DNA from: Sipunculus nudus
Taxonomy: Eukaryota; Annelida; Sipuncula; Golfingiida; Sipunculidae
Direction of reading: 5' to 3'
DNA length: 64,000 nucleotides
NCBI GenBank assembly: GCA_026874595.1
Contig: CM049309.1
Span: forward strand, 48,468,079-48,532,078
Shown here piece after piece: positions 1 through 42,364 of the stretch. The notes beneath the pieces were generated by a model that did not search any database, was not told where the DNA came from, and saw only the letters and a list, made by a program, of their open reading frames with translations. A program made the position numbers and the translations under genes. The first letter of the stretch is position 1. Each line of letters opens with the position of its first letter.

Positions 1-493
1 TAACTTTTGTCAGAGTGAGGCGGTCTATATATACACCCGATCAGAGAGTTACGTCTGTTCCATTGAATTTGGACCCAGATTACTTCTAGATGATCATTAG
101 AAATAAAAGGACATACGGTAGATTGCAAGGAACTTTGTACATAAATGGCAACACCTCAACCATGTCTATTTCGGTCTTTTCGGTAGAGAGTATACCCCGG
201 GATTTCGATTTCATGGGTTGCGATACTATCGTCCAGCCAAGTCTCAGTGAGACATACTACATGGACCGAACCAACCTTTAAGAGGAGCACTAATTCGTCG
301 AACTTGGGAGGAAGACTTCTTACATTTAAGTGGATTATAGTTAGGCCGTTCTTCTTTCGGATACACTGTAGGAGTGTTTCATTGAGGAACCATTATCATG
401 CGTGTTTGAGGAAGGCACGTTTTGATAATCGGGAATGAACCCGTCATTGTTGTGACCAGGTAAGTAACTCTCGTTGTAAGGGGTACTGTTCAT
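1..493 (-). pseudogene. CR1-like ORF2 N-terminus: endonuclease domain, broken and cut by window edge
   Basis: The first frame starts at ATG 493-491 and runs about 50 codons to a TAA at 343-341. The next frame resumes at once with the endonuclease signature IIHLNVRSL, then CLTETWLDD (the conserved TETWL block) and GCIYRPP near the window edge. A TGA at 158-156 falls where the family has a glycine-rich NRHGGG-type motif, so it looks like a GGA to TGA nonsense change. The domain should cut target DNA for target-primed reverse transcription. This copy cannot make it. The rest of ORF2 (RT) lies outside the window. Confidence 0.8.
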
Positions 494-1602
494 GTTAATT
501 CTATTGCTGCTTGCTTGTGAAAATTTTTAAGAGAGGTTGCGATTTTGATTACATCACATATATTTGAACGGAATGCCTTTGAGCCTTTCTTGTTTAGATG
601 GAGGTTGTCAGATTTTAGTGTAAATGGACCAAGGTTATCAGTCATTAGCAGAGTCCATCCGTTTTTTTCAGCGTAGATTTCTAGTGCGGCATTCAGAAGT
701 CTTATTCTTTTAGAGTATATCTTAGAGGGTCTGCTAATCACTGTGCTAATTGTGACGTGCTTAATACTAGGATTCTGTTTTATAATTGGCACAATCTTAC
801 GGAACTTACGAATGCTAGTGTCTGCATTTTCTTTGCTTACATGATTTGTACCGATGTGTATGAGAAGATGGTCAGATTTGACTTGCTTGATCCTATCAAT
901 AGCATGATCAAAAGTAAACACACTTGAGTCCACATGCACATTGACTTTGGTTTTATCGGAGAGGTCAGAAGAGTTCAAGTTCTTTGTCATTGAGTCCCCC
1001 AGGACTTTTTCGTAAGAGGATTGGCAGGGCCTTGTTTTGTGTTGTTTGTGTTCGTGTGAAGGCTTGGGCGTAGAGTTCCCTGATTTCTTCTGAGCTCTGT
1101 TTACATGGCATGTTGCTGGGTTTACATTGGAGTCGTTGTGTACTTCTGTGGAAGCGTCTGTGCTAGGACACGCGTTTACGTCTCGGAAGCTGATATTTGA
1201 GGCTGTTACAGACGAATCTTCACTCGTTGAATTTGATAGTGTGGAGTTTAGAAGAGTAATGGGTGTACTGGTATTCAGCGTAGTCTGTGTTGCAGTGGTC
1301 TTGATTTTTGGAGTTGAGGGTGGATCATTTACTGGTGATGACGAAAGGCAGTTTGTTGTTACGTTACATTTGCATTGACAGCATCGTGTTGAGTTCGATG
1401 GAGTGATACGTTCCATGAGGGCATTAATCTGGGTTTGAAGGGCTATGTTTATCTCAATTAGCGACTCAAGGCGGGTAGCAAGGAGGTTGATTTTGTGTGG
1501 ATAGTTTCTGCACGTTATACACGTCCAGATGCCAAGAGTTCCACTATCCTCTCCTACACATACTGGATGGAACCAGCTCATACAGATGCAGCATCGAACC
1601 AT
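490..1602 (-). pseudogene. CR1-like ORF1, C-terminal part: PHD finger and SGNH esterase
   Basis: The frame opens inside a PHD-type zinc finger (CCICMSWFHPVC, then WTCITC) and continues through a short coiled segment (LESLIEINIALQTQINAL) and a Ser/Thr-rich linker. It ends in an SGNH hydrolase domain. All three catalytic blocks are present: LGDSMTKNL (nucleophile Ser), IHIGTNH (GTN block) and DNLHLNKKG (Asp and His). The esterase triad is therefore intact even though the element is dead. The protein ends ELT and its TGA overlaps the ATG of ORF2. The N-terminal half is in another frame (1578-2378), so a 1-nt indel near 1680-1715 splits the original ORF. In live CR1 elements ORF1 is an RNA-binding accessory protein; the esterase role is unsettled. 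Confidence 0.8.
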
Positions 1603-2378
1603 AGATTCATCAGCATACTTGCGATCATATACACAGTCCTTAGAGCAATATGATTCTTCTTGATCTTTGGTTTCAAGGTTACGTTTTGTTGCACTTTAAA
1701 TGATGTTCTTTTTTTTGTATTACGTGTCTGACGTTCACATGTAGCTTTATCAGGTGTTAGTTTATCACAGTTTGATTTTGTGTTCACCTCATTGTATGAA
1801 TTAGGAGAGCAATGGGTGTTATCATTCAGCTCAGCGTGTGAAATAGGGGAGCAATGGGTGTTATCATTCAGCTCAGCGTGTGACATTACACTAATATCCA
1901 GAGGTGGTGGAGGCGACGTAAAGGCTGGCGATAATGGAGAGACTTGAGGTATTGATGAGTTTATATCAGGTAATGGACTCATTGAGTTGGAATTTTGAGG
2001 GGTCTTCTGGAAAAGATCCCCCAGGATGTTGTCTTTTGTTGTTGACCCTTTGTTCTCAATTGGGGATGAAGCGATGACCGCAACACTGGTTTCTCTCAAT
2101 CTGGTTTGTACTCTGTTGTTTATACCATTAGATATGAATAACGCTTTGCATGAAAGTACAGGTTTTGGTATTGACGGGATTATATTGGCAAGTTCTGCCT
2201 GGATTGCTGACTTGCATTTTGTTTTCCTGAATTTGTTTAGGTCACACTTCTTCATATTATGAACAGTGGTATTCCAGTTATTTGTGACGTCTCTGATGGC
2301 TTGCTCGAGTTTTTCTTTTGTCGGCACAGGCAAGCTATCGAGCAGCATGTTAGATTGTTGAATCAGTTTGTCAGACAT
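1578..2378 (-). pseudogene. CR1-like ORF1, N-terminal part
   Basis: A 266-codon frame starts at MSDKLIQQSN and holds a helical N-terminus, then a low-complexity Ser/Pro/Asn-rich stretch. That stretch includes a tandem duplication (HAELNDNTHCSPISHAELND, and a diverged third copy). It runs out of frame just where the PHD finger begins: the zinc-binding Cys residues upstream of 1602 (YCSKDC) are readable only in the frame of the 490-1602 segment. I read the two ORFs as one ORF1 split by a single-base indel. A real intron is a less likely alternative, because the bordering sequence has no convincing splice sites. Confidence 0.7.
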
Positions 2379-7433: not shown

Positions 7434-9400
7434 ACACGTGGATATAATTATGTCTGGGGCCGGGCGTGTTACAATACCGAATCTTTTGACCTTTGGAACA
7501 CATGTGAACCTTAGTGTCTGGGGGCTTGCGTGTTAGAATCCTGAATCCCTGACATTTGGAACACGTGGTTATCTTAGTGTCTGGGGGCTTGCGTGTAAGA
7601 ATCCTGAATTCTTGTCATTTGGAACACGTGGTTGTCTTAGTGTCTGGGGGCTTGCGTGTAAGAATCCTGAATCCCTGACATTTCGAACACATGGTTGTCT
7701 AAGTGTCTTGGGGCTTGCGTGTAAGAATCCTGAATCCCTGAAATTAGGAACACGTGGTTACCTAGTGTCTGAGGGCGTGCTTGTAAGATTACTGAATCCC
7801 TGACTTATGGAACAAGTGGTTGTCTTAGTGTCTGAGGGCGTGCTTGTGAGAATCCTGAATCCCTGAAATTAGGAACACGTGGTTGTCTTAGTGTCTGGGG
7901 GCTTGCGTGTTTGAATCCTGAATCCCTGACATTTGGAACACATGGTTACCTTAGTGTCTGAGGGCGTGCTTGTAAGAATCCTGATTCCTGACATTTGGAA
8001 CACGTGGTTGTCTTAATGTCTCGGGGCTTGCGTGTTAGAATCCTGAATCTCTGACATTTGGAACACATGGTTACCTAGTGTCTGAGGGCGTGCTTGTAAG
8101 ACTCCTGAATCCCTGACGTATGGAACACGAGGTTGTCTTAGTGTCTGAGGGCGTGCTTGTAAGAATCCTGAATCCCTGATATTGGAACACGTGGTTGTCT
8201 TAATGTCTGGGGGCTTGCGTGTTAGAATTCTGAATCCCTGACATTTGGAACACATGGTTATCTTAGTGTCAGAGGGCTTGCGTGTAAGAACCCTGAATTC
8301 CTGACATTTGGAAGTCGTGATTGTCTTAATGTCTGGGAGCTTGCGTGTTAGAATGTTGAATCCCTGACATTTGTAACACATGGTTAACTTAGTGTCTGAG
8401 GGCGTGCTTGTAAGAATCCTGAATTCCTGACATTTGGAACACGTGGTTGTCTTAATGTCTGGGGGCTTGCGTGTTAGAATCCTGAAACCTTAACATTTGG
8501 ACCACGTGGTAACCTAGTGTCTGAGGGCGTGCTTGTAAGAATCCTGAATCCCTGACATTTCGAACACGTGGTTGTCTTAGTGTCTGAGGGCGTGCTTGTA
8601 AGAATCCTGAATCCCTGAAATTTGGAACACGTGGTTGTCTTAGTGTCTGGGGGCTTGCCTGTTGGAATCATGAATCCCTGACATTTGGAACACATGGTTA
8701 CCTTAGTGTCTGAGGGCGTGCTTGTAAGAATCCTGAATCCCTGACATTTGTAACACGTGGTTGTCTTAGTGTCTTGGGGCTTGCGTGTAAGAATCCTGAA
8801 GTCCTGACATTTGGAACACGTGGTTGTCTTAGTGTCTGGGGGCTTGCGTGTTAGAATCCTGAATCCCTGACATTAGGAGCACATGGTTACCTTAGTGTCT
8901 GAGGGCGTGTTTGAAAGAATCCTGAATCCCGGACATATGGAACACGTGGTTGTCTTAGTGTCTGAGGGCGTTCTTGTAAGAATACTGAATCCCTGAAATT
9001 AGGAACACGTGGATATCTTAGTGTCTGAGAACATGCTTGTAATATTCCTGAATCCCATATGTCTGAGGGCATGCTTGTAAGAATCCTGCATCCCTTACAT
9101 ATGGAACACGTGGTTATCTTAGTGTCTGAGAGCGAGCTTGTAAGAATCCTGGATCCCTGACATTTGAAACACGTGGTTATCATAGGGTCTGAGGGCGTGC
9201 TTGTAAGAATCCTGAATCCCTGACATTTGGAACACGATGATATATTGATGTCTTGGGTTGTGTGAATACGTATTCAAAATCATTGGCAGTGTGAACACAT
9301 GGATATCATAGATTCTGTAGCAATGCGTGTAAGAGGTCCGAACAACTGACATTTTGAACACGTGGACAGTACGGTGTCTGGGGACGTGCGTCATTGACAG
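7434..9400. repeat. 63-bp minisatellite (about 31 units) rich in CACGTG E-boxes
   Basis: Successive copies of TAGTGTCTGGGGGCTTGC fall 63 bp apart (for example 7515, 7578, 7641, 7704), with occasional 62-bp units. Each unit also has GAATCCCTGACATTTGG and GAACACGTGG. By eye about 18 of about 31 units keep a perfect CACGTG palindrome; most others read CACATG. Since 63 is a multiple of three, the minus strand shows several short open frames with a 21-residue period (KCQGFRILTRKPSDTK type). They are broken by indels and are not taken as genes. Confidence 0.9.
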
Positions 9401-12789: not shown

Positions 12790-12970
12790 TTACTTTAGCA
12801 CGATTTCTGTGGCAATACTTATAATCATCGACCAGATGGCTGCACCGGGAAACAGCTGAGGCGCAGTGCTCACGGTCGCCATCATTCGAGGAACCCGTAT
12901 CCAACAATCATTGGTATTGGTTCTGCACCCTGTGGAACGCTGTGGCCGACAAAATACTTCACGAGTGTCA
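12790..12970 (-). CDS. Paralogue 1 exon 9: Cys-rich end and GPI-like tail
   Basis: Acceptor CCTACAG|TGAC; stop TAA at 12792-12790. Encodes DTREVFCRPQRSTGC, NDCWIRVPR and a hydrophobic tail (AAIWSMIISIATEIV). Confidence 0.85.
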
Positions 12971-14141
12971 CTGTAGGATACATATACCATAGGAATAAAA
13001 AAGTTTAACGGGGAAATATACTAACATACACACACAAAAATGATCTTTCCTGGATAAGGCTTATGTGGATAGTTATTTAAAAAAAAAACTTGTATCATGT
13101 CATTTTTTGATGTGAGAATATCCTCCCTAGAAATATCATAGCATGGTTGATATACAGTAAATCACGCGAAAATAAGCAACACACAACTCATTCTAGCTGC
13201 AAATATTACATTAACTATAAATTGTTACGAGATGTACAGAAACGTAAAGGAGATATAAAACACCTATGCAATGAAGATTTATACATTCATATATTGATAA
13301 GCTATTGTATCACCGTGAAATTAATTAAAGGAGCTTAAAAGCTACGCAACATCGAGCAAAAAAGATTAATCCTGTTCAACCAGGAAGGCCATGTTGACGT
13401 CACCTTAATTTTTATTCATAAGAGGTGAATATGTATAATTATATTCATAATATATGAAGGCTTTGTTGATACGCACTCAAGATTATCAATACACTGGTAT
13501 CCTTTGAGGTGGTAGGTGTTAGTAATCAAGTCCTCCAGTCTTTCCAGTGATCCCTGCCCACAACGTTCTCTGAGAAGCAATATGACAACTGTTAAAACAT
13601 GTGGATCTTCATCATGCCGTGGTGCGTCCATGCTTGATTTTAACGGATACTTTGATAAATAAATTACAAGAGAAGATTGTGGGAACTTAAAATTCATGAC
13701 CATCTCTATTGTTGTTAACTGTATAAATATAACTGATTCGTCAATAAAGCGCTCGGATATATTATGTTATATTAGGTTTATCGGAAACCACCGCATGTAG
13801 CTCCAAAACAAATCCTGTTTAACCTACTCTGGTGAGTGGTCGTCATTGCCAACGACATATACGGTCACCCCGGTAACCAATTCACTGTTTAAACTTGGCA
13901 GCTCATCCCGAGCAAAGATCCTGAAATTACAATCGTATAATCATTTTAGGATATATACGTAATTTTACAACACTTATTGATGCATGTCAACATTTTAACT
14001 ATATCCCAACTTCTGCACGCTTTACTTTAAAAAGTACCATATATCAAATATTGGAACAACATTGCAAGAAAAAGTCATGATAATTTAATGTTTGAATCTG
14101 TTTATTACCAGTTTACCTACAGTTTGTTAACGGAAAAGTAA

Positions 14142-14196
<55 letters not shown>

Positions 14197-15533
14197 TTAC
14201 GTCTCCTCATAGAAAACTTGTTCATACAACCCATCCAGAAGAATCCGCACTTGTCCTCTAGCCAGAGTCGCGTACTTAACATAGAGAGAATCCATTGTGA
14301 CCTAATTATTTCTATGGTGCATGATAAATATATCTTCTCTTAGGTATTACCTTATCGATAAACAAAAAATATAAAAATGGTTCGAAACAATTTATCAATA
14401 TCAGTTGAACATACCTCTCTAGATACACGGCGCCAAAACGCTCTTTCTGTGGTGCTTGTTGGTTCATTTTCGTTTTGTATTACATAACCATACCCATTTT
14501 CGTTGTTAGGATCAGATATCCAATGGGTACCATTGACTGGCAAACCTGCTCGTAAATAATATCTCAAACATACGACTGGGATGATATTATATTTCCTTTT
14601 ATAGTAATCTCTTTGTGTCTATGTGTCAATTTGGAAAGGAATGATAAATTCCTACGAACTATTGCTCGTCTTATAGCAAACACAAGGGGAAACTAATTAG
14701 CTAAAATTATTATCCGATTACTAACCTAGCATAGTCTTGGATATCGACACATAATCCTCTTTGATGCCACATTCCCTCAGGCCCGAATAAAAGGTTACCT
14801 ATATAATATCACATCGAAGACATGTAGATAAACGTTTATATTCACACAAATACATGTACATTATCATATGGCATAATTGCAATAAGCCTCTGGGTAAAGA
14901 CGTTCACCGCGCAACCCCTCTGGAAACAGATAACATCTGTTTTCAGATACCGAGGTAATAATGGATTAATAAACTTAATCATTCATTATATCATTTAAAA
15001 GATGGAAAGAGAGGACATTCAGGACGTGGTTGTCGGGTGGACAAGGACAGGGGTATCAATACAGGGGGATATATATCTCCTAACTATTAGCAACAGGTGA
15101 TGATCAATGTATGTCATGCCCGTGCTATTCAGAGAAAAAAATTAAGAATGATAGACTTGATCCCATTTCTCCACATTTCATTTCTCTATAAAATAATAGA
15201 TATTTTAGCCTTGTTTAATCTTAATAAAACCTTTCTTCAAACATAATAATATCTATTTTTATCTTATACTTAGCTATAATATTTAAATGGGTCACAAAGA
15301 CAATATATATATACATGATGTATATATATATATTTATGTGTGTGTGTATGTCTAGATTTAAAATAAACTAATCCTTAGCTATAATATATTTGAAATGGGT
15401 CACCCAGACAATATATATATGTGTGTGTATTTATAGCTAGATAGAAAAATGTGATATTTCAATAATAATATTATACAAGGCGTTCACCCAATCCACGAAG
15501 ATAACTGGACGAAGACGCAGAACAGCTCTCATC

Positions 15534-15585
<52 letters not shown>

Positions 15586-17283
15586 AATCTATATTGAAAA
15601 AGCAAGTAATAACGACACTTATAAAGCATTCTACAAGAGTGTTGATTTTAATGTTTTCTTCATGCAACATTTCCCAATACAGCCGTATATATCGGTCTAT
15701 TTCCCAAATGATGCGAACATTTTAAAAAATATTTTCCTCATCAAAATTAAATCATGTTATGTTATTCCATCTGAAATACCGTCACTTGTAATTTTTCCCT
15801 TCATAAAAAGATATACTAACCAGATAATTAAAATGAAATATGTTTGACCATTTGTATTCTTCAAGATATTAGGTCCAGGTCAAAACTAAATATCATTTGT
15901 AATTGTTATTGAAACCAAAAGGTAAATTATTCAATCCCCAATATAAGAGATCTAGCGCAAACAGGGAAGAAAAAAGAATTCGAGGTGAATGAAGAAAGCC
16001 AAATGATACAGAAAAAAAAACAAAATTAATCATCAAACTATATATACCTCGTCATAAATTCTCGAGGGAGAACAACAGAAATGTTCCTTTAAAATTAAAG
16101 AAATGTGAATATAATTTTCTTTTCTTAGATTATTCTCTTTTAAGGTGTATTAAATAAAAAATCATACATAATCCTCAGGTAGACTGTGGCTGGCTGCTCC
16201 GGCATAATCATCGTAGTCAGGCTGATCAATGTCTTTGTCCTCCTTGTTACAAAAACCATCACGGAATTTTCTCCAGAGGTCCTGACACTTTCCTCCATCA
16301 CTGCTCAGTGTGTCGTTTTGAATACAAAATTAACCATTACAATTTTAACGACGTCTATGTTACGAAGCGCATATTCGAAAAAAAAATAAAGATGTTGAGC
16401 AACAGAGATACAAATATTTGAATTTGCAAGATTTTTAGTCGTCCGTATTTTTGTTACTTAATTTTTTTTGGTACGGTGTTGGTTGTAAAATGTCTAATGT
16501 GGAATTTTAATTGTTTAACCCTATTCTTGAGTTCTAGGATGTAATGTATGTCATGGACAGGGGGGTACCTTTTCGTAAGATTATCTGCGTTGTCTGTTTT
16601 GTCAATGATACATAACATTAAACTACATGCAAAATTATAGTTGAAAATATTAAGTCTGTATAAAATATCGCTTCACTGACCAGTAACAAAATTTCATTTT
16701 TATTCTACATATGACTTACTGGGTAGCAAGGGTTATCTATGACTTCATCTGCCAAACACTCTCTGATTTTGATGCATGTCATGTAAGTCCTTTTTAGATG
16801 ATAAATTATTATCGCTAACTCCAATACAATTTTAGTAGTAGTAAAACCAAAATTTATAAGAACTGATGATTTGAATTATTCGATCTTTAACATGAAGTGT
16901 ATATGACCTAGCAAGTAGATAATTTGCCTTCTCGAGGATTATATAAATATATAAATATTTTTATTCAAAGATTAGTTTATTTTAAATATGTACACATTTG
17001 AATGATTATAAACTTAATCATAGGATATATCCAACCACTTGTTTATCTTGGTTTCGAAGCTCGAACGCTGATATGCCTGCCCCTTTTCCTTGCTTAGGTT
17101 GCCTCTATTAAAAATGATGAAACATTTATATATGCTAAGTTCTGGAATAATGTCTTACCTTTCAAGGAACCCGCATCGCCCTAAAAACGGACTTGTAAAG
17201 GGCCCATTATCACAGTCTGGTTGGGCCTTGACAACACATACAAGAAGCAGGATGACAAGGGTGACTGTCCAAGCTGTCTTCAT
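12790..17283 (-). CDS. ADP-ribosyl cyclase / CD38-BST1 family protein, paralogue 1 (nine coding exons)
   Basis: Joining nine exons gives 319 codons with consistent phases. The protein has a signal peptide (MKTAWTVTLVILLLVCVVKA), the family's FLGRC start and CQDLWRKFRDGF. It goes on with VTFYSGLRECGIK, SISKTMLG, THWISDP, RAFWRRVSRE, YATLARGQVRILLDG and RDELPSL, then a Cys-rich C-terminus and a hydrophobic tail fitting a GPI-anchor signal. Family members turn NAD into cyclic ADP-ribose/ADP-ribose (or NAADP by base exchange) at the cell surface. Of the four active-site positions of human CD38 (W125, E146, W189, E226), the last two are kept (W167, E204). The first two are Tyr109 and Ser125. Cyclase or hydrolase activity is therefore uncertain. 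The ATG follows a possible acceptor (ATATACAG), so a 5' UTR exon may lie further upstream. Confidence 0.88.
13477..13569 (-). CDS. Paralogue 1 exon 8
   Basis: Acceptor TTCTCAG|AGAA, donor CTTGA|GTGCGT (chosen by phase and by match to paralogue 2). Encodes ERCGQGSLERLEDLI to CIDNL. Confidence 0.8.
13828..13920 (-). CDS. Paralogue 1 exon 7: catalytic Glu exon
   Basis: Acceptor TTTCAG|GATC, donor CAGA|GTAGGT. Encodes IFARDELPSLNS and GVTVYVVGND; the Glu of DELPSL aligns with CD38 E226 (E179 of the Aplysia enzyme). Confidence 0.85.
14141..14195. repeat. (AT)n microsatellite abutting a splice donor
   Basis: Lies in intron 6 of paralogue 1 and runs directly into the GTAAGT of exon 6. Confidence 0.95.
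14201..14274 (-). CDS. Paralogue 1 exon 6
   Basis: 74 bp, identical in length to paralogue 2 exon 5. Encodes YATLARGQVRILLDG. The donor GAC|GTAAGTAT runs directly into the (AT)n tract 14141-14195. Confidence 0.88.
14415..14545 (-). CDS. Paralogue 1 exon 5: FWRRVS exon
   Basis: Acceptor GAGCAG|GTTT, donor AGAG|GTATGT. Encodes LPVNGTHWISDP to FWRRVSRE; the Trp aligns with CD38 W189. The WC of the family's WCG is WI here. Confidence 0.88.
14726..14798 (-). CDS. Paralogue 1 exon 4: altered active-site segment
   Basis: 73 bp, the same length as paralogue 2 exon 3. Encodes VTFYSGLRECGIK and VSISKTML. This aligns with the CD38 segment holding W125 and TLED E146, here Tyr and Ser. Confidence 0.85.
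15272..15430. repeat. Direct duplication of about 105 bp in intron 3 of paralogue 1
   Basis: TAGCTATAATAT followed by AATGGGTCAC and AGACAATATATATA occurs near 15272 and again near 15377, with TG/TA tracts between. Confidence 0.75.
15534..15585. repeat. (AT)n(GT)n microsatellite
   Basis: AT alternation passing into GT; intron 3 of paralogue 1. Confidence 0.95.
16168..16287 (-). CDS. Paralogue 1 exon 3
   Basis: Exactly 40 codons, from CQDLWRKFRDGF to SHSLPEDY; donor TTAT|GTATGA. The acceptor (GGAAAG|TGT) has a poor pyrimidine tract. It was chosen because it is in phase 0 and keeps the conserved Cys. Confidence 0.75.
16720..16789 (-). CDS. Paralogue 1 exon 2: short Cys-rich exon
   Basis: Acceptor AAAAAG|GACT, donor CCCA|GTAAGT; the phase fits exon 1. 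Encodes TYMTCIKIRECLADEV then DNPCYP. No counterpart was found in paralogue 2. Confidence 0.75.
17159..17283 (-). CDS. Paralogue 1 exon 1: signal peptide and FLGRC motif
   Basis: ATG at 17283-17281; donor AAAG|GTAAGA. 41 codons plus 2 nt. Confidence 0.85.
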
Positions 17284-33210: not shown

Positions 33211-33217
33211 TATAAAA
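33211..33217 (+). promoter_or_regulatory. TATA box for cyclase paralogue 2
   Basis: TATAAAAGG lies 101 nt upstream of the ATG. Transcription would start near 33240, giving a short 5' UTR with small upstream ATGs (one directly followed by TAA). Confidence 0.55.
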
Positions 33218-33311
33218 GGGCACCTTCATGTAAAATAAACGTAACCTCTGATCATGCGATTATATGTACATGTATATATTTATAGTTTTAACGCCAATTT
33301 ACCAGCAAAGA

Positions 33312-33424
33312 ATGGAAAATCACAGGACAGTCTTCTTATTTCTACTTCCCATTTACACCGGACAAAACTGTGATCCCACCAGCCTCAGCAGCATCTTCAC
33401 ATTCCAATGCGACAACGTGAACAA
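33312..33424 (+). CDS. Paralogue 2 exon 1: signal peptide
   Basis: 37 codons plus 2 nt; donor AACAA|GTGAGA. Reading past this donor meets TGA at once. The last 20-odd bases and the donor form part of the 75-bp repeat unit. Confidence 0.8.
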
Positions 33425-36251
33425 GTGAGACTTACTGACAGTTTATGCGAGAATGTTTATTATGAAATATGGTATATCCCAATGCGACAACGTGAACAAG
33501 TGAGACTTACTGACAGTTTATGCGAGAATGTTTATTATGAAATATGGTATATCCCAATGCGACAACGTGAACAAGTGAGACTTACTGACAGTTTATGCGA
33601 GAATGTTTATTATGAAATATGGTATATCCCAATGCGACAATGTGAACAAGTGAGACTTACTGACAGTTTATGCGAGAATGTTTATTATGAAATATGGTAT
33701 ATCCCAATGCGACAACGTGAACAAGTGAGACTTACTGACAGTTTATGCGAGAATGTTTATTATGAAATATGGTATATCCCAATGCGACAATGTGAACAAG
33801 TGAGACTTACTGACAGTTTATGCGAGAATGTTTATTATGAAATATGGTATATCCCAATGCGACAATGTGAACAAGTGAGACTTACTGACAGTTTATGCGT
33901 GAATGTTTATTATGAAATATGGTATATCCCAATGCGACAATGTGAACAATTGAGACTTACTGACAGTTTATGCGAGAATGTTTATTATGAAATATGGTAT
34001 ATCCCAATGCGACAACGTGAACAAGTGAGACTTACTGACAGTTTATGCGAGAATGTTTATTATGAAATATGGTATATCCCAATGCGACAACGTGAACAAG
34101 TGAGACTTACTGACAGTTTATGCGAGAATGTTTATTATGAAATATGGTATATCCCAATGCGACAACGTGAACAAGTGAGACTTACTGACAGTTTATGCGA
34201 GAATGTTTATTATGAAATATGGTATATCCCAATGCGACAACGTGAACAAGTGAGACTTACTGACAGTTTATGCGAGAATGTTTATTATGAAATATGGTAT
34301 ATCCCAATGCGACAACGTGAACAAGTGAGACTTACTGACAGTTTATGTGAGAATGTTTATTATGAAATATGGTATATCCCAATGCGACAACGTGAACAAG
34401 TGAGACTTACTGACAGTTTATGCGAGAATGTTTATTATGAAATATGGTATATCCCAATGCGACAACGTGAACAAGTGAGACTTACTGACAGTTTATGCGA
34501 GAATGTTTATTATGAAATATGGTATATCCCAATGCGACAACGTGAACAAGTAAGACTTACTGACAGTTTATGCGAGAATGTTTATTATGAAATATGGTAT
34601 ATCCCAATGCGACAACGTGAACAAGTGAGACTTACTGACAGTTTATGCGAGAATGTTTATTATGAAATATGGTATATCCCAATGCGACAACGTGAACAAG
34701 TGAGACTTACTGACAGTTTATGCGAGAATGTTTATTATGAAATATGGTATATCCCAATGCGACAACGTGAACAAGTGAGACTTACTGACAGTTTATGCGA
34801 GAATGTTTATTATGAAATATGGTATATCCCAATGCGACAATGTGAACAAGTGAGATTTACTGACAGTTTATGCGAGAATGTTTATTATGAAATATGGTAT
34901 ATCCCAATGCGACAATGTGAACAAGTGAGATTTACTGACAGTTTATGCGAGAATGTTTATTATCAAATATGGTATATCCCAATGCGACAATGTGAACAAG
35001 TGAGATTTACTGACAGTTTGCGCGTGAATGTTTATTATCAAACATAGTACATCCGAATGCGACAGTGTGAACAAGTGAGACTTACAGTTTGTGCGTGAAT
35101 GCTTATTATCAAATATAGCAACAGTACTAAGCTTATTAAAACTTATTTACATATTATTTTAACCTTGTTCGATGGTACTTAGTGGTTATAAAACGTAACT
35201 GACAGGAGCGTCTATACAGGGGGATGTGGTCAAGGGAGAATTCAGAGAATAATATTTGTTTGGAAATGAATTAAAGCGTCCCAGCTCAAATCACTCATTT
35301 TATTTTACACCTTTTGGCAGCAAATATCGTTATGGAAAGGACTGTCATGCCTTGTGGGAACTCTTTCGAAATGGATTTTACTACAAGAAAGACCACGAGA
35401 TATCTAAATCCAGTTATGATGAGTATACCAAAGAAGGGCGCCACAGCCTAACCAAAGACGAGGTATGATCAGTTATAAAAATGAAAAGGTCACACATTCA
35501 CGATCTGGACCATGGTCTGTCCCGACTAATCGTAGCCACGAAAGTCGTGTGTGGTCGTGTGAGAAGTTCCACCATATCAACTCCTACGACTGTACTATAC
35601 GATACTGCTGAGATAAAGCAAGGTGGCTCCAGGACCTGTCACGACTTAAGGCAGAAATTTTTAATACAATGTGTAACTGAAAGGCACAAATTAGAACGAT
35701 TCCCCCACCTTCACGGGCCGAAGACACACGACCCTCTGCAATAAGCGACGATTCCTATATGAATAATCACGATGCATTAAACACGTAGGATGTCGTAAAA
35801 AATCGTAGCAAACCGTGATATATCGTAGTAACACGTACCACAACATCAGAGATGTCCGACGACTGTCCCGGATTAACCACGATATATGCCGACTAGGCAC
35901 ATGTTAACGTCTGATCAAGTTCATTTTAACGTTTGTCTCCTGATGAATGACTATCGACTTAGGATGGAGCTACGATTGGAAAATATTCGTATGGGCTCCA
36001 CAACAATTTCAACCTTTCCAAAATAGTCATAACCCTCGCCCGACCTATCATGGCCCATCCCGACCTCCACGATTCATAACGACTGCGCCACGACCTTGGT
36101 CCCGGCAATCACGATTTCAAACCGTAGCTATATCGTAGTTCAAATCGTGAAGATGTGCCATTTTTCTCTTTTTTTTTTAATTTGTTCATTTTAATTTGTC
36201 ATGATTTTTTCCTCGTTTTGAATTTTTTGTTAAAATATTGAAGTTCTATAC

Positions 36252-36329
<78 letters not shown>

Positions 36330-38533
36330 TCGTATTCGGATTTCTGTGGATTTGACTAAAATACTGACCAGTTCACCACAATTTGATATCCTTATGCTTT
36401 ACACGCAAGGACACTGATGGTGCCCGTATTATTGTATATTTTGTGATATCGTTCGCTTTCCCACAGGAATTTCAGGATACCAGTATACAAATGCATGTGC
36501 GTTTGAAAATGTCGCATTTGTATGTGAATGCAAGTCCATCGGGTATTCGTAATTGCCAATATACGACTACTGAAACATTCTGACATTAACTGATGTTCAC
36601 CCTGTTATAAATATATATCAATCAGGTTTACCTCTTTTTTTACCTATCTAATTAGAGTTAACAATTTGCATTTAAGTTATATGAATTATGTACATTTGCA
36701 TTTATATGTAGAGTTCCATTTGTCTCCAATCTGGGATATTTTTTATCTGAACTCTAACATTTTTTTTCCTGTGTGGAAGATTACTTTTAAAGGTTACATT
36801 ACCACTTTTTTGTACTCCTAAACAAGGTCACATTATATTCTGGATTAAAGGAAAATGGCATCAAAGACGATCTCCTTTCAATATCAAGGACAATGCTTGG
36901 TAAGTTGGAGTTGAGTCCCAGTAAGTGATAAATAACTGTTAATAAATGTGTCATGTGACAATGTGGATATATGTAACAGGAATATACACGCTGTATTGGC
37001 TTAATATATTCCATGGCTTTAGCATTTTTTATGGTTATCAGACTGACAAATTTCCTTTACTTTGATGTTCTTTTATCATTTATGAAACGTTGTGTAATTT
37101 TTTTTATAACTGATGATTTCATTTTATTGGAAATTTAATTCCACCAGGTTAAACTAATAGGTAAACTAATAGTAAACATAATAATTTTTAAATCTGCCGA
37201 TAGGTGGCCCTGTTAACGGGGTTCATTGGATTGCTGATCCAGTGGTGGGGTACAGGTTACCGAACGACAGTGGAAGTAATACCGAGACGATGTTTTGGCG
37301 CCGAGTCTCAGAAGAGGTAAATTTAGCGTATAATTTTATTTACGATTAATTATTTTATGTGATGACAAGATTCTATTTAGAACCATGTTTATATTTGTAT
37401 TCATAATTTTTCATAAATGTATACAATGGGCTTCGTTTCAGGAGGGGGGGGGGAGCGAGGGATGTAAACAAAGTATCCTTTGTAACCCTCATTTTATAGG
37501 AGAATTAAGCGCATAAATTTGTACATAGCGATTTCAAGACTGAATTTCCGTCTTTCGCTTTTTGGTTTTCATCCTATTAACCTGTTAGAAATATTTTGTT
37601 TCCAACAGTATGCTGCTCTGGCTGAAGGAGAAGTAAGGGTTCTCTTGGATGGAACCAGAGAGAATGCTTTTAAAGAAGACACGTAAGAATTACTACATGT
37701 AATTAACATCCCGGACTTTTTTATTACAATATGTTATCCGTGCAGACATAACATGAAAGAGGTCCTTCATGCCTGGACACATCCATTTTTTATGTGATCA
37801 GTTTCAGGATTAGCTGATGATGCACAGCTTAAATTCTATCGTCATGACAACATGTTGTTTATGTAGTTTTATTTTCGGTTTCATTTATATGGCAGTACGA
37901 CAAAGCGTGCAGTGCATTGTTAATTTCAAGTAAGGACCTTTTGTTTAAATATGGAAGGTAATTTTACAGAAGTAAAAAAGGACCGTTTGTGCGACAAGCA
38001 CGGACAGTCCTACCGGAATTAATTATTAGAAGTCTTCACGATCTTATCTGAAAACGGGTTCCCTTGATATTGCAAGTTGGTAGTTTTGTTCATGAAGATA
38101 TATATTACTTTAACATAAACATGATTTTGTATCGCTTGTCAAGCGTCAAATCAGGAAAAAGACGCTTCAGTCTATTTATCTTTACAAAATAATAGACTAA
38201 CGCGGGTCAGTAATTCAACCTGCTGCTTTAAGACGCCTGACGCGCGCTGGCTGAAATAACTTAAGACAGATTTTCCCTCCCCTGCATTCGAATTCAGTAT
38301 TAAACTGCACGCTATAATTGATTTGACTATAATTATTGATGGGAATCTGGTTAGAAAACGTGCAACAAAGCAACACAAATATATAATATCATTGTGAAGA
38401 AAGATTGGTCTCAAACAGATACATATTTGTATACATTTTATCCAATGCTGATCATCAAGATTACTAGTTTTACAACGATTAACAAAATATACAACATGTA
38501 CTTGGTTAATACCATACAATCTGATGAATTGTC

Positions 38534-38567
<34 letters not shown>

Positions 38568-41500
38568 AGCCATGAAATATGCAATGAATATGTAAAAAAT
38601 ATTTCAATGTAAACCTTACTTATTAAATTTAATCTACTGAGATTTATTTCAGCATCTTGGGAATAGAAGAAATCCCTAACTTAAATAGCGCAAATGTGAA
38701 CAAAGTGACGGTATATGTAGTTACTTCTGACAGTGAAAAAAGGTATGTTTAATAATTAGTAGTAACAGCACTGAATGGTGCGGTAGAAGTACCAGGGTAT
38801 ATGTTATTTGATGTGTTTGTCCAAAAGACTTTAATGTGTCCGAACGCTATGTCTATTTTTTTTTCTTTCTCTCATTCTGTCATGGCAGCCCGGGATTTAC
38901 CATTTTCTCTTTTTTACTCAAGATTTTTCATTTGTTATTAATTTAGCTGATTGAAAATCATCTGAGCTATAGCGAAGGGTTTTTGTCTGGTGGTCCGGTT
39001 GCCCAGTCGTCTCTTAACAGGTCACTAATCGTAACGATTAGACGTTGGAATTACACCCTAGGGAAATCTTAAATTCTTAAAATCTTAAAAAGGGAAATCT
39101 AAGGTGACCTAAAGCCTGTGAGCTATGGGTCAAAAACATGTTTTTTTTGTAATCTGATTGCCAGATTTATGTCACAGTTTAAAGTTGCTGAACATCTATT
39201 TTTGCATTAGATCATAAAATTAAACTTACTTGTGCTAAATTTACACATTTAAGTACTATCAGCATGCAGAGTTTTATCAGAATCGGATACGTTTCATATA
39301 TTCGAATACATAAGCTAGGTTATGTCTGTTACCCCATGTGTCAGGAACAGCTGGCGCTGCGACCAATGAACATAACAAATCTATTGAGCCTGTTACAGGT
39401 TTATCAGTGTACAGTGCAGGTGGCGCCACTTATATTGACTCAGTTTCTGTTTGATAAAACATTCTTTTCCACTACTTTTACCTCAAGCAGGAAAACAGAG
39501 TAACAATTTAACTTTTATGTTAAGGTTAATTATAGTATGTAGGATTAATGAGTATTAGTTCATCTTAATTATTTTCAAAATGCCGTTTTGTTAATTGCAG
39601 TATTTGATTTCTTTGTTTGTTTAGAATATGTTATTCGTTACAAAATAGTGTTAAATTGTGAATTGTATTCTTGGGTCTCCTGTTAAGAACACCTATCAGT
39701 ACAGATATCAGTGTGATACTTAGCAGGGCACATATAGTAACTATTAGGTCAGGGTTATTCAAACTTAATATCCAGCAACCAGGTACAAGTAAATTCAAGC
39801 TGTAACCCCTAACTTGGTCACTTTAACTTATATGATTTATCTTTCAGTAGTGTGTCCTTTTCAGCAAAGCGTCATGGCCCATGGCCACTTTTTTTCATAC
39901 TCTGAATTTTCGTTTTTCTCTTTACCAATCAGATTTGCGATTTGCTCTTTTCTTTACAGGAATACGCTTTTGTTCTTTCCTACTCCAAAAGTATATCATT
40001 TTCTATGTTACAATTCTGTTTATGCTTTCGACAAAAAAAATATTTTTTGTCGTGTCCTACTTTCACTAGTTTACATTTTTAATCAATACATCTTTAACCT
40101 TGAAGGAGGGAAATAACTGGTGATCTACAATGCTTATTCCAGGCGTTTTGTAAAATTTATTGATTAAGATATCCGTACATAATAAAATAAATTCATCCAT
40201 ATAATTTAAGAGGATCAGAAGACTCCTTGTTGTGTTGTATACAAGGAAAATAAAATAACCGTTTTGTATCGTTTTTGTCATATCATAACATTACAAATAA
40301 GCGATTTGTGCTATTTTTCAAAGCACGTCTATTATATATTGTGTAACTAATATTTATGTTCTAATATTATTTAATACATTTTTGTCTGGTAAGGGTTACC
40401 CTCCTCGAACAGCGTTTGTACACTGCAGTTGTATCAGATCCCGTTCCAAAAGCTATTTCGAAGTCTCAACAACAGTGCTGGCACAAGGTCAAGAATCAGA
40501 CCAACGAGAGCGGGGTGTCACGATTTTAGACGTTGAGTTGCATGCACAGTCCTATACTCCGCTGTCATTGGTCTGATCAGAATCATTTGCACTGCTCCCA
40601 CTCTGGTGGTGAGAGCCGGAGAATCATTTTTTAAAGATATTTTGGTGGAGGTAACCGCTCCCTATTTTTTAATGCGTGTACATATGCACAATTCAATTTC
40701 TTTATCGGACTACGTGACAGGGGCTTGCAGGCGATAATTCTGTCGTCAACCAGCTTCGGTGTATCACTCCTGCAGGTCCTAGGTGTGTATTATTCCAATT
40801 GCTGGGTCTTAACACCGAGGAACCTGTGAAAAGGTGCACTCGTTTGTGAGTGAAACACGTCTGTTGGGCACAGTCTCCCCGTTACCCTGAAGTATTTCAC
40901 CTCCTTGACTGGGATTCGAACTCACGATCTCCCGGCTTTAAGCCCTCCTTGAGCCACAATCCCGAAGAATCATGCTATATAGAGCAGCGGTTAAAACGAA
41001 GGCGATCTGGAACAATTGCAGTGTATACCTGCTGCGTAAGGGTGAAGGTGAGAATTAATCATTTGCTTTTAATTTCTGCGGATCGAAAATGTTCGTGCAT
41101 TTCTAATTCTATGTTTCCAACCTAATCTATCTTGAACAGACGAGACTCGTGTGGAGGGGAATCGTTGATTAGACTGAGATATCTGATAGAAAAGAAGGGC
41201 ATCATATACTGCTGTATTGACAACCAGGCGTAAGTACATGATGATAGTTATCTCGAAATGTTTATGACGATCAAAGCTCAATGGCATGCATGATTTGTTA
41301 TAATTTACTTTCTTTCTAATCTCTTGCTATGGTAGGAGGACAGTCCAATCAATATGTGTGCATGGTAGAAACGACCAGTACACGGTCTGAGATAGTCCGA
41401 GCTGGCCAACTGGCCCAGTCTACTCGACAAGAAGGTAGTTTTCTTATTGGAAAGGTTTGAATGTGAACAGCAACATCTTTTGGCCATTAAGGACTGCATG

Positions 41501-42364
41501 GTATTAGGCCATTGTATGTTTTTGATAAAGGAGCTTTGTATTGAGGGAAAATTTGTAATGAGAAGTACACCCTCCCCCGACATAAGGACACCCGCTCCAA
41601 AATCTCGCCCTGCGCCCACTTAAGACAAACAGGACAAAATCTAACACTTAGGATAGTTTTCTTTAATCCTACCCTATTTTAGAAATAATTTCTCAGTTTT
41701 CAGTACCAATTATTACATTTGATTTACATATTCATAACCTGGGCTTACATATAGACAATAAAATTAGACAATTGAAAAATGTAATATCATAAATGTTCTA
41801 AATATAAGATGCATAACTGAAATATTATTGAAGAGGTTTCACGAAAATATAAACTGTGAAATAATGTTCTCGAAATTTAGACATTTTTTTTTATTTCCCT
41901 CAAAGGTGAGGAGGACAAACAGCACTTTGTCCACCACAATTAAAAAAGTGGGGATGATGTTTACCCAAGAAACAAGGCCCATGACTTCACTGTTGTTTGT
42001 AATGAACAATATAAAATACTCATAAAAACTAATTTGACCATTAACAAGAGTTAATTTACATTTGTAGAAAAAGAGAGAGGATCAGCTATCCAGGAAAATC
42101 ACATTTTCGCATTTTAGAAATTACCTAACATGGCAAAACACATATATATATTTAATTTTCCCATTTTTAACCTCTAGTATATATATTTTTTACAGTGAAG
42201 CTCGGAGAGTGTTTTGTCCCCCGAACAGGAAGCGGGCCACTGGATGTTGCGATTGTTGGACACGAGTTCCGGACATTGTCGTCAACAAGGCGCCGAAGAT
42301 GTCTGCAGCGCGATGGCTGGCACTGATAGCTTCCGTCTTAAGCTTCAGAATCATCTGTGCTTAA
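33312..42364 (+). CDS. ADP-ribosyl cyclase / CD38-BST1 family protein, paralogue 2 (eight coding exons)
   Basis: Eight exons join in phase to 287 codons. The order is signal peptide (MENHRTVFLFLLPIYTG), CHALWELFRNGF, VTLYSGLKENGIK, SISRTMLG, PVNGVHWIADP, MFWRRVSEE, YAALAEGEVRVLLDG (very close to the Aplysia AEGEV segment), IEEIPNLNS, VNKVTVYVV, RDSCGGESLIRL, YCCIDN, then a Cys-rich end and a hydrophobic GPI-like tail. The family cyclises or hydrolyses NAD outside the cell. W141 and E178 align with CD38 W189 and E226. Tyr89 and Ser105 stand where CD38 has W125 and E146. There is no exon matching paralogue 1 exon 2, and intron 1 is filled by a 75-bp minisatellite. TATA box at 33211, poly(A) signal at 42548. 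The two genes diverge from a 16-kb spacer. Confidence 0.88.
33403..35105. repeat. 75-bp minisatellite, about 22.6 units, containing the exon 1 splice donor
   Basis: The unit starts CCAATGCGACAACGTGAACA, which is the end of exon 1 with its GTGAGA donor, and continues CTGACAGTTTATGCGAG to GGTATATC. Units are nearly identical; the last three or four carry shared variants (TGAGATTTAC, TATCAAAT). Because 75 is divisible by three, one frame is open for 546 codons as a 25-residue repeat. That frame is not the gene's frame, where TGA follows the donor at once. Confidence 0.95.
35321..35462 (+). CDS. Paralogue 2 exon 2
   Basis: Acceptor TTTTGGCAG|CAAA, donor CGAG|GTATGA. Encodes KYRYGKDCHALWELFRNGF to HSLTKDE, matching paralogue 1 exon 3; the phase fits exon 1. 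Confidence 0.85.
35490..36165. mobile_element. Unclassified CG-rich insertion in intron 2 of paralogue 2
   Basis: Unlike its AT-rich surroundings, this segment is crowded with ATCGT, CGTAG and CACGA motifs on both strands. Its ends are imperfect inverted repeats: GGTCACACATTCACGAT on the left and ATCGTGAAGATGTGCC on the right. No coding frame was recognised. Confidence 0.45.
36257..36328. repeat. (AT)n microsatellite
   Basis: Pure AT in intron 2 of paralogue 2. Confidence 0.95.
36827..36899 (+). CDS. Paralogue 2 exon 3: altered active-site segment
   Basis: 73 bp; donor CTTG|GTAAGT. VTLYSGLKENGIK then LLSISRTML: Tyr for W125, Ser for E146. Confidence 0.88.
37204..37316 (+). CDS. Paralogue 2 exon 4: FWRRVS exon
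   Basis: Acceptor CGATAG|GTGG, donor AGAG|GTAAAT. Encodes PVNGVHWIADP to MFWRRVSEE. Confidence 0.9.
37609..37682 (+). CDS. Paralogue 2 exon 5
   Basis: Acceptor CCAACAG|TATG, donor ACAC|GTAAGA. Encodes YAALAEGEVRVLLDG to FKED; 74 bp as in paralogue 1. Confidence 0.9.
38533..38566. repeat. (ATT)n microsatellite
   Basis: About 11 ATT units in intron 5 of paralogue 2. Confidence 0.95.
38653..38742 (+). CDS. Paralogue 2 exon 6: catalytic Glu exon
   Basis: Acceptor TTATTTCAG|CATC, donor AAAAG|GTATGT. Encodes ILGIEEIPNLNS to VTVYVVTSDSEK. Confidence 0.88.
38944..39888 (+). repeat. Dispersed repeat family A, copy 2
   Basis: Starts TAGCTGATTGAAAATCATCT and ends AGCGTCATGGCCCATGGCCA, as copy 1 (4638-6815), but is less than half its length. 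It lies in intron 6 of paralogue 2. Confidence 0.65.
40495..40577. mobile_element. Small MITE with ATCAGACCAA ends, copy 1
   Basis: ATCAGACCAACGAGAGCGG on the left and CCGCTGTCATTGGTCTGAT on the right are inverted repeats. 83 bp, in intron 6 of paralogue 2. Confidence 0.65.
40880..40960 (-). repeat. tRNA-like SINE fragment
   Basis: The minus strand has GTGAGTTCGAATCCCAG, a good B box. The rest does not fold into a complete tRNA by eye. Confidence 0.45.
41140..41229 (+). CDS. Paralogue 2 exon 7
   Basis: Acceptor TTGAACAG|ACGA, donor CAGGC|GTAAGT. Encodes RDSCGGESLIRLRYLIEKK to CCIDNQ. Confidence 0.85.
42196..42364 (+). CDS. Paralogue 2 exon 8: Cys-rich end and GPI-like tail
   Basis: Acceptor TTTTTACAG|TGAA, stop TAA 42362-42364. 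Encodes EARRVFCPPNRK, CCDCWTRVP and a hydrophobic end (WLALIASVLSFRIICA). Confidence 0.85.

What the first reader, a model, noticed from the sequence alone, without database searches (positions are those of the whole stretch)
33403..35105. A 75-bp minisatellite amplifies an exon end together with its splice donor
The repeat unit starts inside exon 1 of paralogue 2 and carries the AACAA|GTGAGA donor, so about 22 candidate 5' splice sites stand in a row. Only the first gives an open protein, because TGA follows each later use in the gene frame. Each unit also has an acceptor-like ACTTACTGACAG. The array could act as a splicing modulator or a source of nonsense-mediated-decay isoforms. Its length is probably polymorphic.
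Basis: partly seen in the sequence, partly recalled or inferred. Interest (0 to 1): 0.78.

Follow-up and report, generated by a model that had tools for sequence, protein, structure and literature searches.

The report
Repeated splice-donor array in a cyclase gene
In what is probably an animal gene for a CD38-like enzyme, the end of the first exon and its splice signal have been copied 23 times in a row, leaving 22 possible cut points of which only the first can give a full protein; a similar case is known in a human gene.

Summary
A 75-bp minisatellite (33404-35116, 23 units) starts 21 nt inside exon 1 of an intact, modelled eight-exon ADP-ribosyl cyclase gene (P2) and repeats its donor; 22 of 23 units keep a GT donor. 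The first donor sits at the phase-2 position modelled for paralogues P1 and P3. Any later donor keeps unit 1's own TGA and gives 38 residues; that stop is mostly a by-product of a phase-2 GTRAG donor. The core motif was reported 22 times in the 1.43-Gb assembly, all in this array: a local expansion, not a dispersed element. Most likely the first donor is used and the rest is tolerated intron with some unproductive splicing; no RNA was available. The general idea is published for human IFI6/G1P3. Different here: the extra donors are unproductive, and each lies in a self-complementary 13-mer. In nascent-RNA folding donor 1 is more open than later donors (2.1 kcal/mol; 2 of 44 shuffles as large), but the finding is post hoc and other controls do not support special pairing. 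Regulated splicing and length polymorphism are untested.

The parts
33312..33424 (+). exon 1 of paralogue P2 (signal-peptide-like start to Cys, phase-2 end ...QCDNVN|)
   Evidence: gene model with GT/AG sites and phases matching P1; same position as modelled P1 and P3 exon 1 ends
33404..35116 (+). 75-bp minisatellite, 23 units; first 21 nt of unit 1 are the end of exon 1
33425..33430 (+). first donor GTGAGA, the only array donor giving the 287-aa protein
33426..33428 (+). in-frame TGA made by the first donor when a later donor is used or intron 1 is retained
33500..35080 (+). 21 later GT donors, one per unit except unit 8; unit 16 (34550) is GTAAGA
33424..33436 (+). self-complementary 13-mer AGTGAGACTTACT around the donor (unit 1; repeated with the 75-bp period where the unit is unchanged)
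35321..35462 (+). exon 2 of P2; its acceptor is the one all donors would compete for
36827..42364 (+). exons 3-8 of P2 (36827-36899, 37204-37316, 37609-37682, 38653-38742, 41140-41229, 42196-42364)
12790..17283 (-). paralogue P1, eight exons, same intron phases, 858-bp intron 1 without array

Best explanation
A 75-bp segment spanning the exon 1/intron 1 junction of an ADP-ribosyl cyclase gene was duplicated in tandem and expanded to 23 copies by unequal exchange or slippage (inferred). The first, ancestral donor remains the working 5' splice site and the rest of the array is spliced out as intron (inferred from homology and the IFI6 precedent). Some transcripts probably use a later donor, keep the TGA of unit 1 and are lost to NMD or give a 38-residue peptide (inferred), so the array is mainly a tolerated burden that may lower output with copy number, not an evolved device.
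For: The first donor is at the phase-2 position modelled for P1 and P3, a few codons after a Cys. The 21 exonic nt of the unit weakly resemble the exon 1 ends of P1 and P3 (16 and 26 of 1000 shuffles as good) whereas the intronic 48 nt do not (830 and 724 of 1000), which suggests that the exon end seeded the array. The core motif with up to 3 mismatches was reported 22 times in 1.43 Gb, all in this array, and a 298-bp query matched only here; the tool calls such counts lower bounds. P2 is intact: 287 aa, PF02267 E 6.9e-37, 8 exons, 7 of 7 phases as in P1; P1-P2 differences by codon position are 107/86/157 in 278 codons, which looks like past constraint. No depletion of variants at the donor: 2 of 12 distinct variants in units 1-22 fall in its 6 nt, one of them destroying it. 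In IFI6 two downstream repeat units are used as donors, giving three mRNA species (introduction of PMC4526556, passages).
Against: No RNA was available. The first donor has no advantage in sequence: its 9-mer is identical to 20 others and unit 16 scores higher (7.41 v 4.86). If this species uses intron definition, the donor nearest exon 2 could win and most transcripts would be unproductive. Only one assembly was seen, and no relative with a single copy.
Confidence: 0.6

Rival explanations
1. Donor choice by transcription order: each donor lies in a self-complementary 13-mer, so each later donor is made next to an already transcribed complementary copy one unit upstream, while donor 1 is not. 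Donor 1 is therefore the most open while it is 20-80 nt old and binds U1 first; the balance could depend on elongation rate and copy number.
For: Opening energy of donor 1 at 20, 40, 60 nt past the GT is 3.3, 3.8, 4.0 kcal/mol against means of 6.0, 5.4, 6.0 for units 4-6; mean difference 2.1, reached by 2 of 44 shuffles of the intronic part. Over the 23 units donor 1 is the lowest at 20 and 60 nt, tied lowest with the GT-less unit 8 at 40 nt and second to unit 8 at 80 nt. A two-unit fold pairs donor with donor by 6+6 bp.
Against: Post hoc, one of several tests. Donor 1 has no advantage at 8 nt (2.5) and loses it once unit 2 is transcribed (6.9 at 120 nt, 6.4 at 160 nt); later array donors are no more closed than the 13 other donors of P1 and P2 (2.0-10.2 at 40 nt). 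An earlier accessibility run gave donor 1 a lower value in one of three settings and slightly higher ones in two. Shuffled units gain as much from inter-unit pairing (157 of 300 as large), the array is no more stable than shuffles (225 to 237 of 300 at least as stable), and 528 of 2000 shuffled units hold a 13-mer this self-complementary.
Confidence: 0.08
2. The array is a regulated poison device: late donors are used under particular conditions to send transcripts to NMD and tune cyclase levels.
For: All 21 later GT donors give a 38-aa product with the stop 71-1646 nt before the junction; TERT shows that an intronic repeat block can control splicing in a copy-dependent way (PMC3948165, abstract and passages).
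Against: P1 (858-bp intron 1) and P3 have no such array. The stop is automatic for a phase-2 GTRAG donor (5 of 5 here). No RNA.
Confidence: 0.13
3. P2 is a relaxed paralogue: the array removes most productive splicing and is tolerated because other cyclase genes exist.
For: P1, P3 and P4 lie in the same 324 kb and three further PF02267 matches on contig C11; P1 and P2 have a Tyr where the Aplysia cyclase has Trp, and SIS[RK]T for TLEDT (residue roles recalled).
Against: All 8 modelled exons, their splice sites and the reading frame are intact; constraint cannot be dated from the P1-P2 pair.
Confidence: 0.16
4. The array is coding in another frame (557-aa open frame of 25-residue repeats).
For: Stop-free frame 33374-35047.
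Against: 469 of 2000 dinucleotide-shuffled units also have an open plus-strand frame, 1663 of 2000 one in six frames. A four-unit consensus peptide has three Pfam matches, none over the curated cut-off. The commonest variant changes a residue in that frame and is synonymous in the exon 1 frame.
Confidence: 0.02

Closest known systems
Human IFI6 (G1P3, 6-16) minisatellite with multiple splice donors (Turri, Cuin and Porter 1995, NAR 23:1854)
   Same: A minisatellite provides multiple splice donors (title seen in reference lists), and two downstream repeat units are used as donors (introduction of PMC4526556). The 1995 paper itself is not held.
   Different: From recall the IFI6 unit is 12 bp and adds codons in frame; here the unit is 75 bp, a late donor always leaves a stop, and the gene is a cyclase.
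Internal tandem repeats at exon-intron boundaries of human duplicated genes (PMC2812944; abstract and passages)
   Same: Variable tandem repeats at exon-intron boundaries of recent paralogues change splicing; 27 intron modifications were reported.
   Different: Those are human segmental duplications with RNA support; here one locus, no RNA, and one donor amplified about 22-fold.
TERT intron 6 VNTR (PMC3948165; abstract and passages)
   Same: A repeat block acts on splicing through RNA pairing and depends on copy number.
   Different: The TERT repeats lie over 1 kb from the exons and the passages seen mention no donors in them; pairing there is shown by experiment.
Intron gain by tandem duplication (PMC4974935; abstract and passages)
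   Same: Tandem duplication of a segment holding splice signals.
   Different: No new intron with its own acceptor is evident here; the duplicated segment extends an existing intron.
[quoted passage not shown] passages)
   Same: Minisatellite-sized units in intron 1 of a duplicated invertebrate gene.
   Different: The passages seen do not say that the repeats include an exon end or a donor.

Membership tests
Minisatellite providing multiple splice donors (IFI6 type) | Tandem repeat that includes an exon end with its donor | tested here: met
   (exon from a gene model)
Minisatellite providing multiple splice donors (IFI6 type) | Most repeats keep a GT donor | tested here: met
   22 of 23 units
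Minisatellite providing multiple splice donors (IFI6 type) | More than one repeat donor is used in RNA | not testable with these tools
   no RNA data; no spliced retrocopy reported in the assembly
Minisatellite providing multiple splice donors (IFI6 type) | Late donors add in-frame codons (recalled for IFI6) | tested here: not met
   all 22 later units lead to the TGA at 33426-33428
ADP-ribosyl cyclase (PF02267) host gene | Family profile over the curated cut-off | tested here: met
   127.5 bits against 25
ADP-ribosyl cyclase (PF02267) host gene | Eight-exon organisation as in CD38, similar in the Aplysia gene (PMC9033130, passages) | tested here: met
   8 exons, phases 2,0,1,0,2,2,2 in the P1 and P2 models
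ADP-ribosyl cyclase (PF02267) host gene | Catalytic Glu (CD38 Glu226) and active-site Trp/TLED region | tested here: inconclusive
   the Glu aligns (LGIEEI with FGSVEV and FGKYEL), but Trp is Tyr in TLYSG and TLEDT is SISRT; activity not tested
Dispersed repeat or transposable element | Copies elsewhere in the genome | tested here: not met
   22 motif matches reported in 1.43 Gb, all in this array; 10 of 10 matches of a 298-bp query here

The most novel reading that the evidence does not exclude
A self-masking donor array: because the repeated donor is self-complementary, every copy but the first is transcribed next to an antisense copy of itself, so the order of transcription singles out the first of 22 near-identical donors; array length and elongation speed would set the share of productive mRNA.
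Probability: 0.08. Interest if true: 0.75.

Novelty: new variant of a known kind. Interest (0 to 1): 0.42.

Why it matters
It is a natural competition experiment: 22 near-identical 5' splice sites, mostly 75 nt apart, in front of one acceptor, with only the first productive. It makes the question of how a cell picks among equal donors (first made, nearest to the acceptor, or most accessible) directly readable from long-read RNA and array-length variants. It also shows a coding exon end caught at the edge of a homogenising array.

Tried and rejected
Transposon or dispersed satellite origin: rejected, core motif reported only here in the assembly. Coding repeat: open frame explained by chance. 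Selection on donors within the array: no depletion of variants. Special fold of the array: no more stable than shuffles, and no larger gain from inter-unit pairing than shuffles. Retrocopy as proof of splicing: none reported. Likeness of ACTTACTGACAG to the U1 5' end (recalled): within 2 edits of ACTTACCTGGCAG in 19 of 23 units, background 0.0007 (+) to 0.0028 (-) per 75 nt, none within 1 edit; noticed after the fact, and the human-like 20-mer ATACTTACCTGGCAGGGGAG has no match with up to 1 mismatch in the assembly, so the species' own U1 end was not confirmed; two looser patterns did not complete. Exon 1 of P4 was sought upstream of its exon 2 and not found. A Pfam scan of 9 other open frames of the window (chosen from 33 of 100 aa or more) gave one weak match.

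Full report
What is there. The window is part of a 1.43-Gb, 153-contig assembly (C4:48468079-48532078) of an organism not named to me, probably an animal (inferred from the CD38-type gene). The finding lies in a gene I call P2. Joining eight modelled exons on the + strand gives an uninterrupted 287-residue protein that matches Pfam PF02267, ADP-ribosyl cyclase, at 127.5 bits, E 6.9e-37, with CD38 and Aplysia cyclase as the best-scoring solved structures (E about 5e-19). A second gene, P1, on the - strand (17283-12790), codes for 300 residues (121.8 bits) and has the same seven intron phases, 2,0,1,0,2,2,2; 136 of 278 aligned residues are identical and differences at codon positions 1, 2, 3 number 107, 86, 157. 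Human CD38 also has eight exons and the Aplysia gene is organised similarly (PMC9033130, passages).

The array. Tandem Repeats Finder gives 33404-35116, period 75, 22.9 copies, 98% matches. I cut 23 units; 13 of 23 equal the consensus. Divergence is highest at the 3' end: units 21-23 carry most changes and unit 23 has a short deletion, while unit 1, which contains the end of exon 1, equals the consensus. Twenty-two of 23 units keep a GT donor; unit 8 lost it (TTGAGA), unit 16 has GTAAGA. Of the 12 distinct variants in units 1-22 (unit 23 left out), one falls in the 21 exonic positions (synonymous in the gene frame), two in the six donor positions and nine in the remaining 48; this shows no depletion at the donor.

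The first donor is the ancestral one. Exon 1 ends QCDNVN| in P2, RCGFLE| in P1 and RCRSLN| in a third paralogue P3, whose exon 1 lies about 5 kb beyond the right edge of the window, all at phase 2 (models, not transcripts). The 21 exonic nt of the unit weakly resemble those two exon ends (16 and 26 of 1000 shuffles as good); the intronic part does not (830 and 724 of 1000). I infer that the array was seeded by the exon end rather than brought in. The core motif with up to three mismatches was reported 22 times in the whole assembly, all within this array, with 0 for the reversed control; a 298-bp query gave 10 matches, all here. The tool warns that counts of repeats are lower bounds.

What the later donors would do. 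In all 22 later units (unit 8, without a GT, included in that count) use of the unit's donor position keeps the TGA at 33426-33428 and stops after 38 residues, 71 to 1646 nt before the exon junction. By the 50-55-nt rule (recalled) these would be NMD targets. This is not special: when an intron is at phase 2 and its donor reads GTRAG, the first full codon after the junction is TRA; 6 of 8 phase-2 introns of P1 and P2 stop there, among them all 5 with GTRAG. A 58-nt cassette between the acceptor-like CAG of one unit and the donor of the next would shift the frame. The acceptor-like motif scores -0.16 to 1.41 on a matrix of only 14 own acceptors, whose own leave-one-out scores run from -6.2 to 9.5 (exon 2's own acceptor 1.15), so that test decides nothing.

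How the first donor might be chosen. Its 9-mer is the same as that of 20 others and is of middling strength (own-donor score 4.86; the 13 other donors of P1 and P2 range from -2.5 to 11.2), so sequence alone cannot favour it. In IFI6 two downstream units are used as well, giving three mRNA species (an introduction citing Turri 1995; the 1995 paper is not held). I noticed that the donor lies in AGUGAGACUUACU, self-complementary in 6 of 6 pairs around a central A, so that neighbouring donors pair in a two-unit fold. Folding nascent transcripts, donor 1 costs 3.3, 3.8 and 4.0 kcal/mol to open at 20, 40 and 60 nt past the GT, against 6.0, 5.4 and 6.0 for units 4-6; the mean difference of 2.1 is reached by 2 of 44 shuffles of the intronic part (the script stopped on time before its planned 150). 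Against it: donor 1 has no edge at 8 nt (2.5) and loses it at 120 nt (6.9), and the 13 other donors of P1 and P2 cost 2.0-10.2 at 40 nt, so the later array donors are not unusually closed; the array as a whole is no more stable than shuffled arrays (225-237 of 300 at least as stable), shuffled units gain as much by pairing between units (157 of 300), and a 13-mer this self-complementary is found somewhere in 528 of 2000 shuffled units; a first, simpler accessibility run put donor 1 lower in one setting and slightly higher in two. I keep this as a testable idea at low probability.

Context. In the 324 kb joined from window and flanks TRF, at score 150 or more, lists seven rows with period 10 or more and four or more copies, two of them AT repeats; of the five others only this array touches an exon that I modelled (P1, P2 and two exons of P3). 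The 63-bp array at 7510-9056 also carries donor-like motifs (GTAAGA 17, GTGAGA 1 in 7510-9311), about 3.5 kb from the nearest exon that I modelled, a reminder that such motifs in minisatellites need mean nothing. P1 intron 1 is 858 bp with no array. P4, closer to P2 in sequence, has no exon 1 that I could find, so the single-copy ancestral state was not seen. A whole-genome PF02267 search listed three matches, all on contig C11, and none of the exons of P1-P4, so it does not count the family.

Compared with print. The kind is known: a human interferon-induced gene has a minisatellite giving multiple donors (title), tandem repeats at exon-intron boundaries alter splicing in human duplicated genes, with 27 intron modifications (PMC2812944, passages), and an intronic VNTR controls TERT splicing by RNA pairing (PMC3948165, passages). 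In the listings of my searches I saw no case with 75-bp units whose late donors are all unproductive, nor one in a cyclase gene; I judged most papers by title and start of abstract only, and the library holds open-licence papers only. Hence a new variant of a known kind.

Noticed in passing
L012:5264-5400, L013:218-350 and onward; C4 about 48582166-48582306: Two more ADP-ribosyl cyclase paralogues next to the window: P3 (+ strand, exon 1 donor AACAA|GTAACA at the same phase) and P4 (- strand, closer to P2), plus, by eye, an exon-8-like stretch upstream of P4.
   Followed up: partly
36827-36899 and 14726-14798: P2 and P1 have Tyr in place of a Trp of Aplysia cyclase (TLYSG/TFYSG for MFWSG) and SISRT/SISKT for TLEDT, so their enzyme activity may differ from CD38 (residue roles recalled).
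   Followed up: no
7510-9311: A second minisatellite, 63-bp unit, about 25 copies, 83% matches, with many GTAAGA motifs, about 3.5 kb beyond the 3' end of P1.
   Followed up: partly
490-1695 (- strand): A 401-aa open frame with a weak GDSL-lipase-like match (28.8 bits, below the Pfam cut-off of 32.9), PHD-finger-like at its start by eye; perhaps a retroelement ORF.
   Followed up: no
33211-33270: TATA-like TATAAAAGG at 33211 and two in-frame ATGs upstream of 33312 (33264, 33270), so the true start codon of P2 is uncertain.
   Followed up: no
L035-L037 (C11, between 33579563 and 33624551): Three PF02267 matches on contig C11; those in L035 and L036 align with exon 2 of P1 or P2 at 33-41% identity.
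   Followed up: partly
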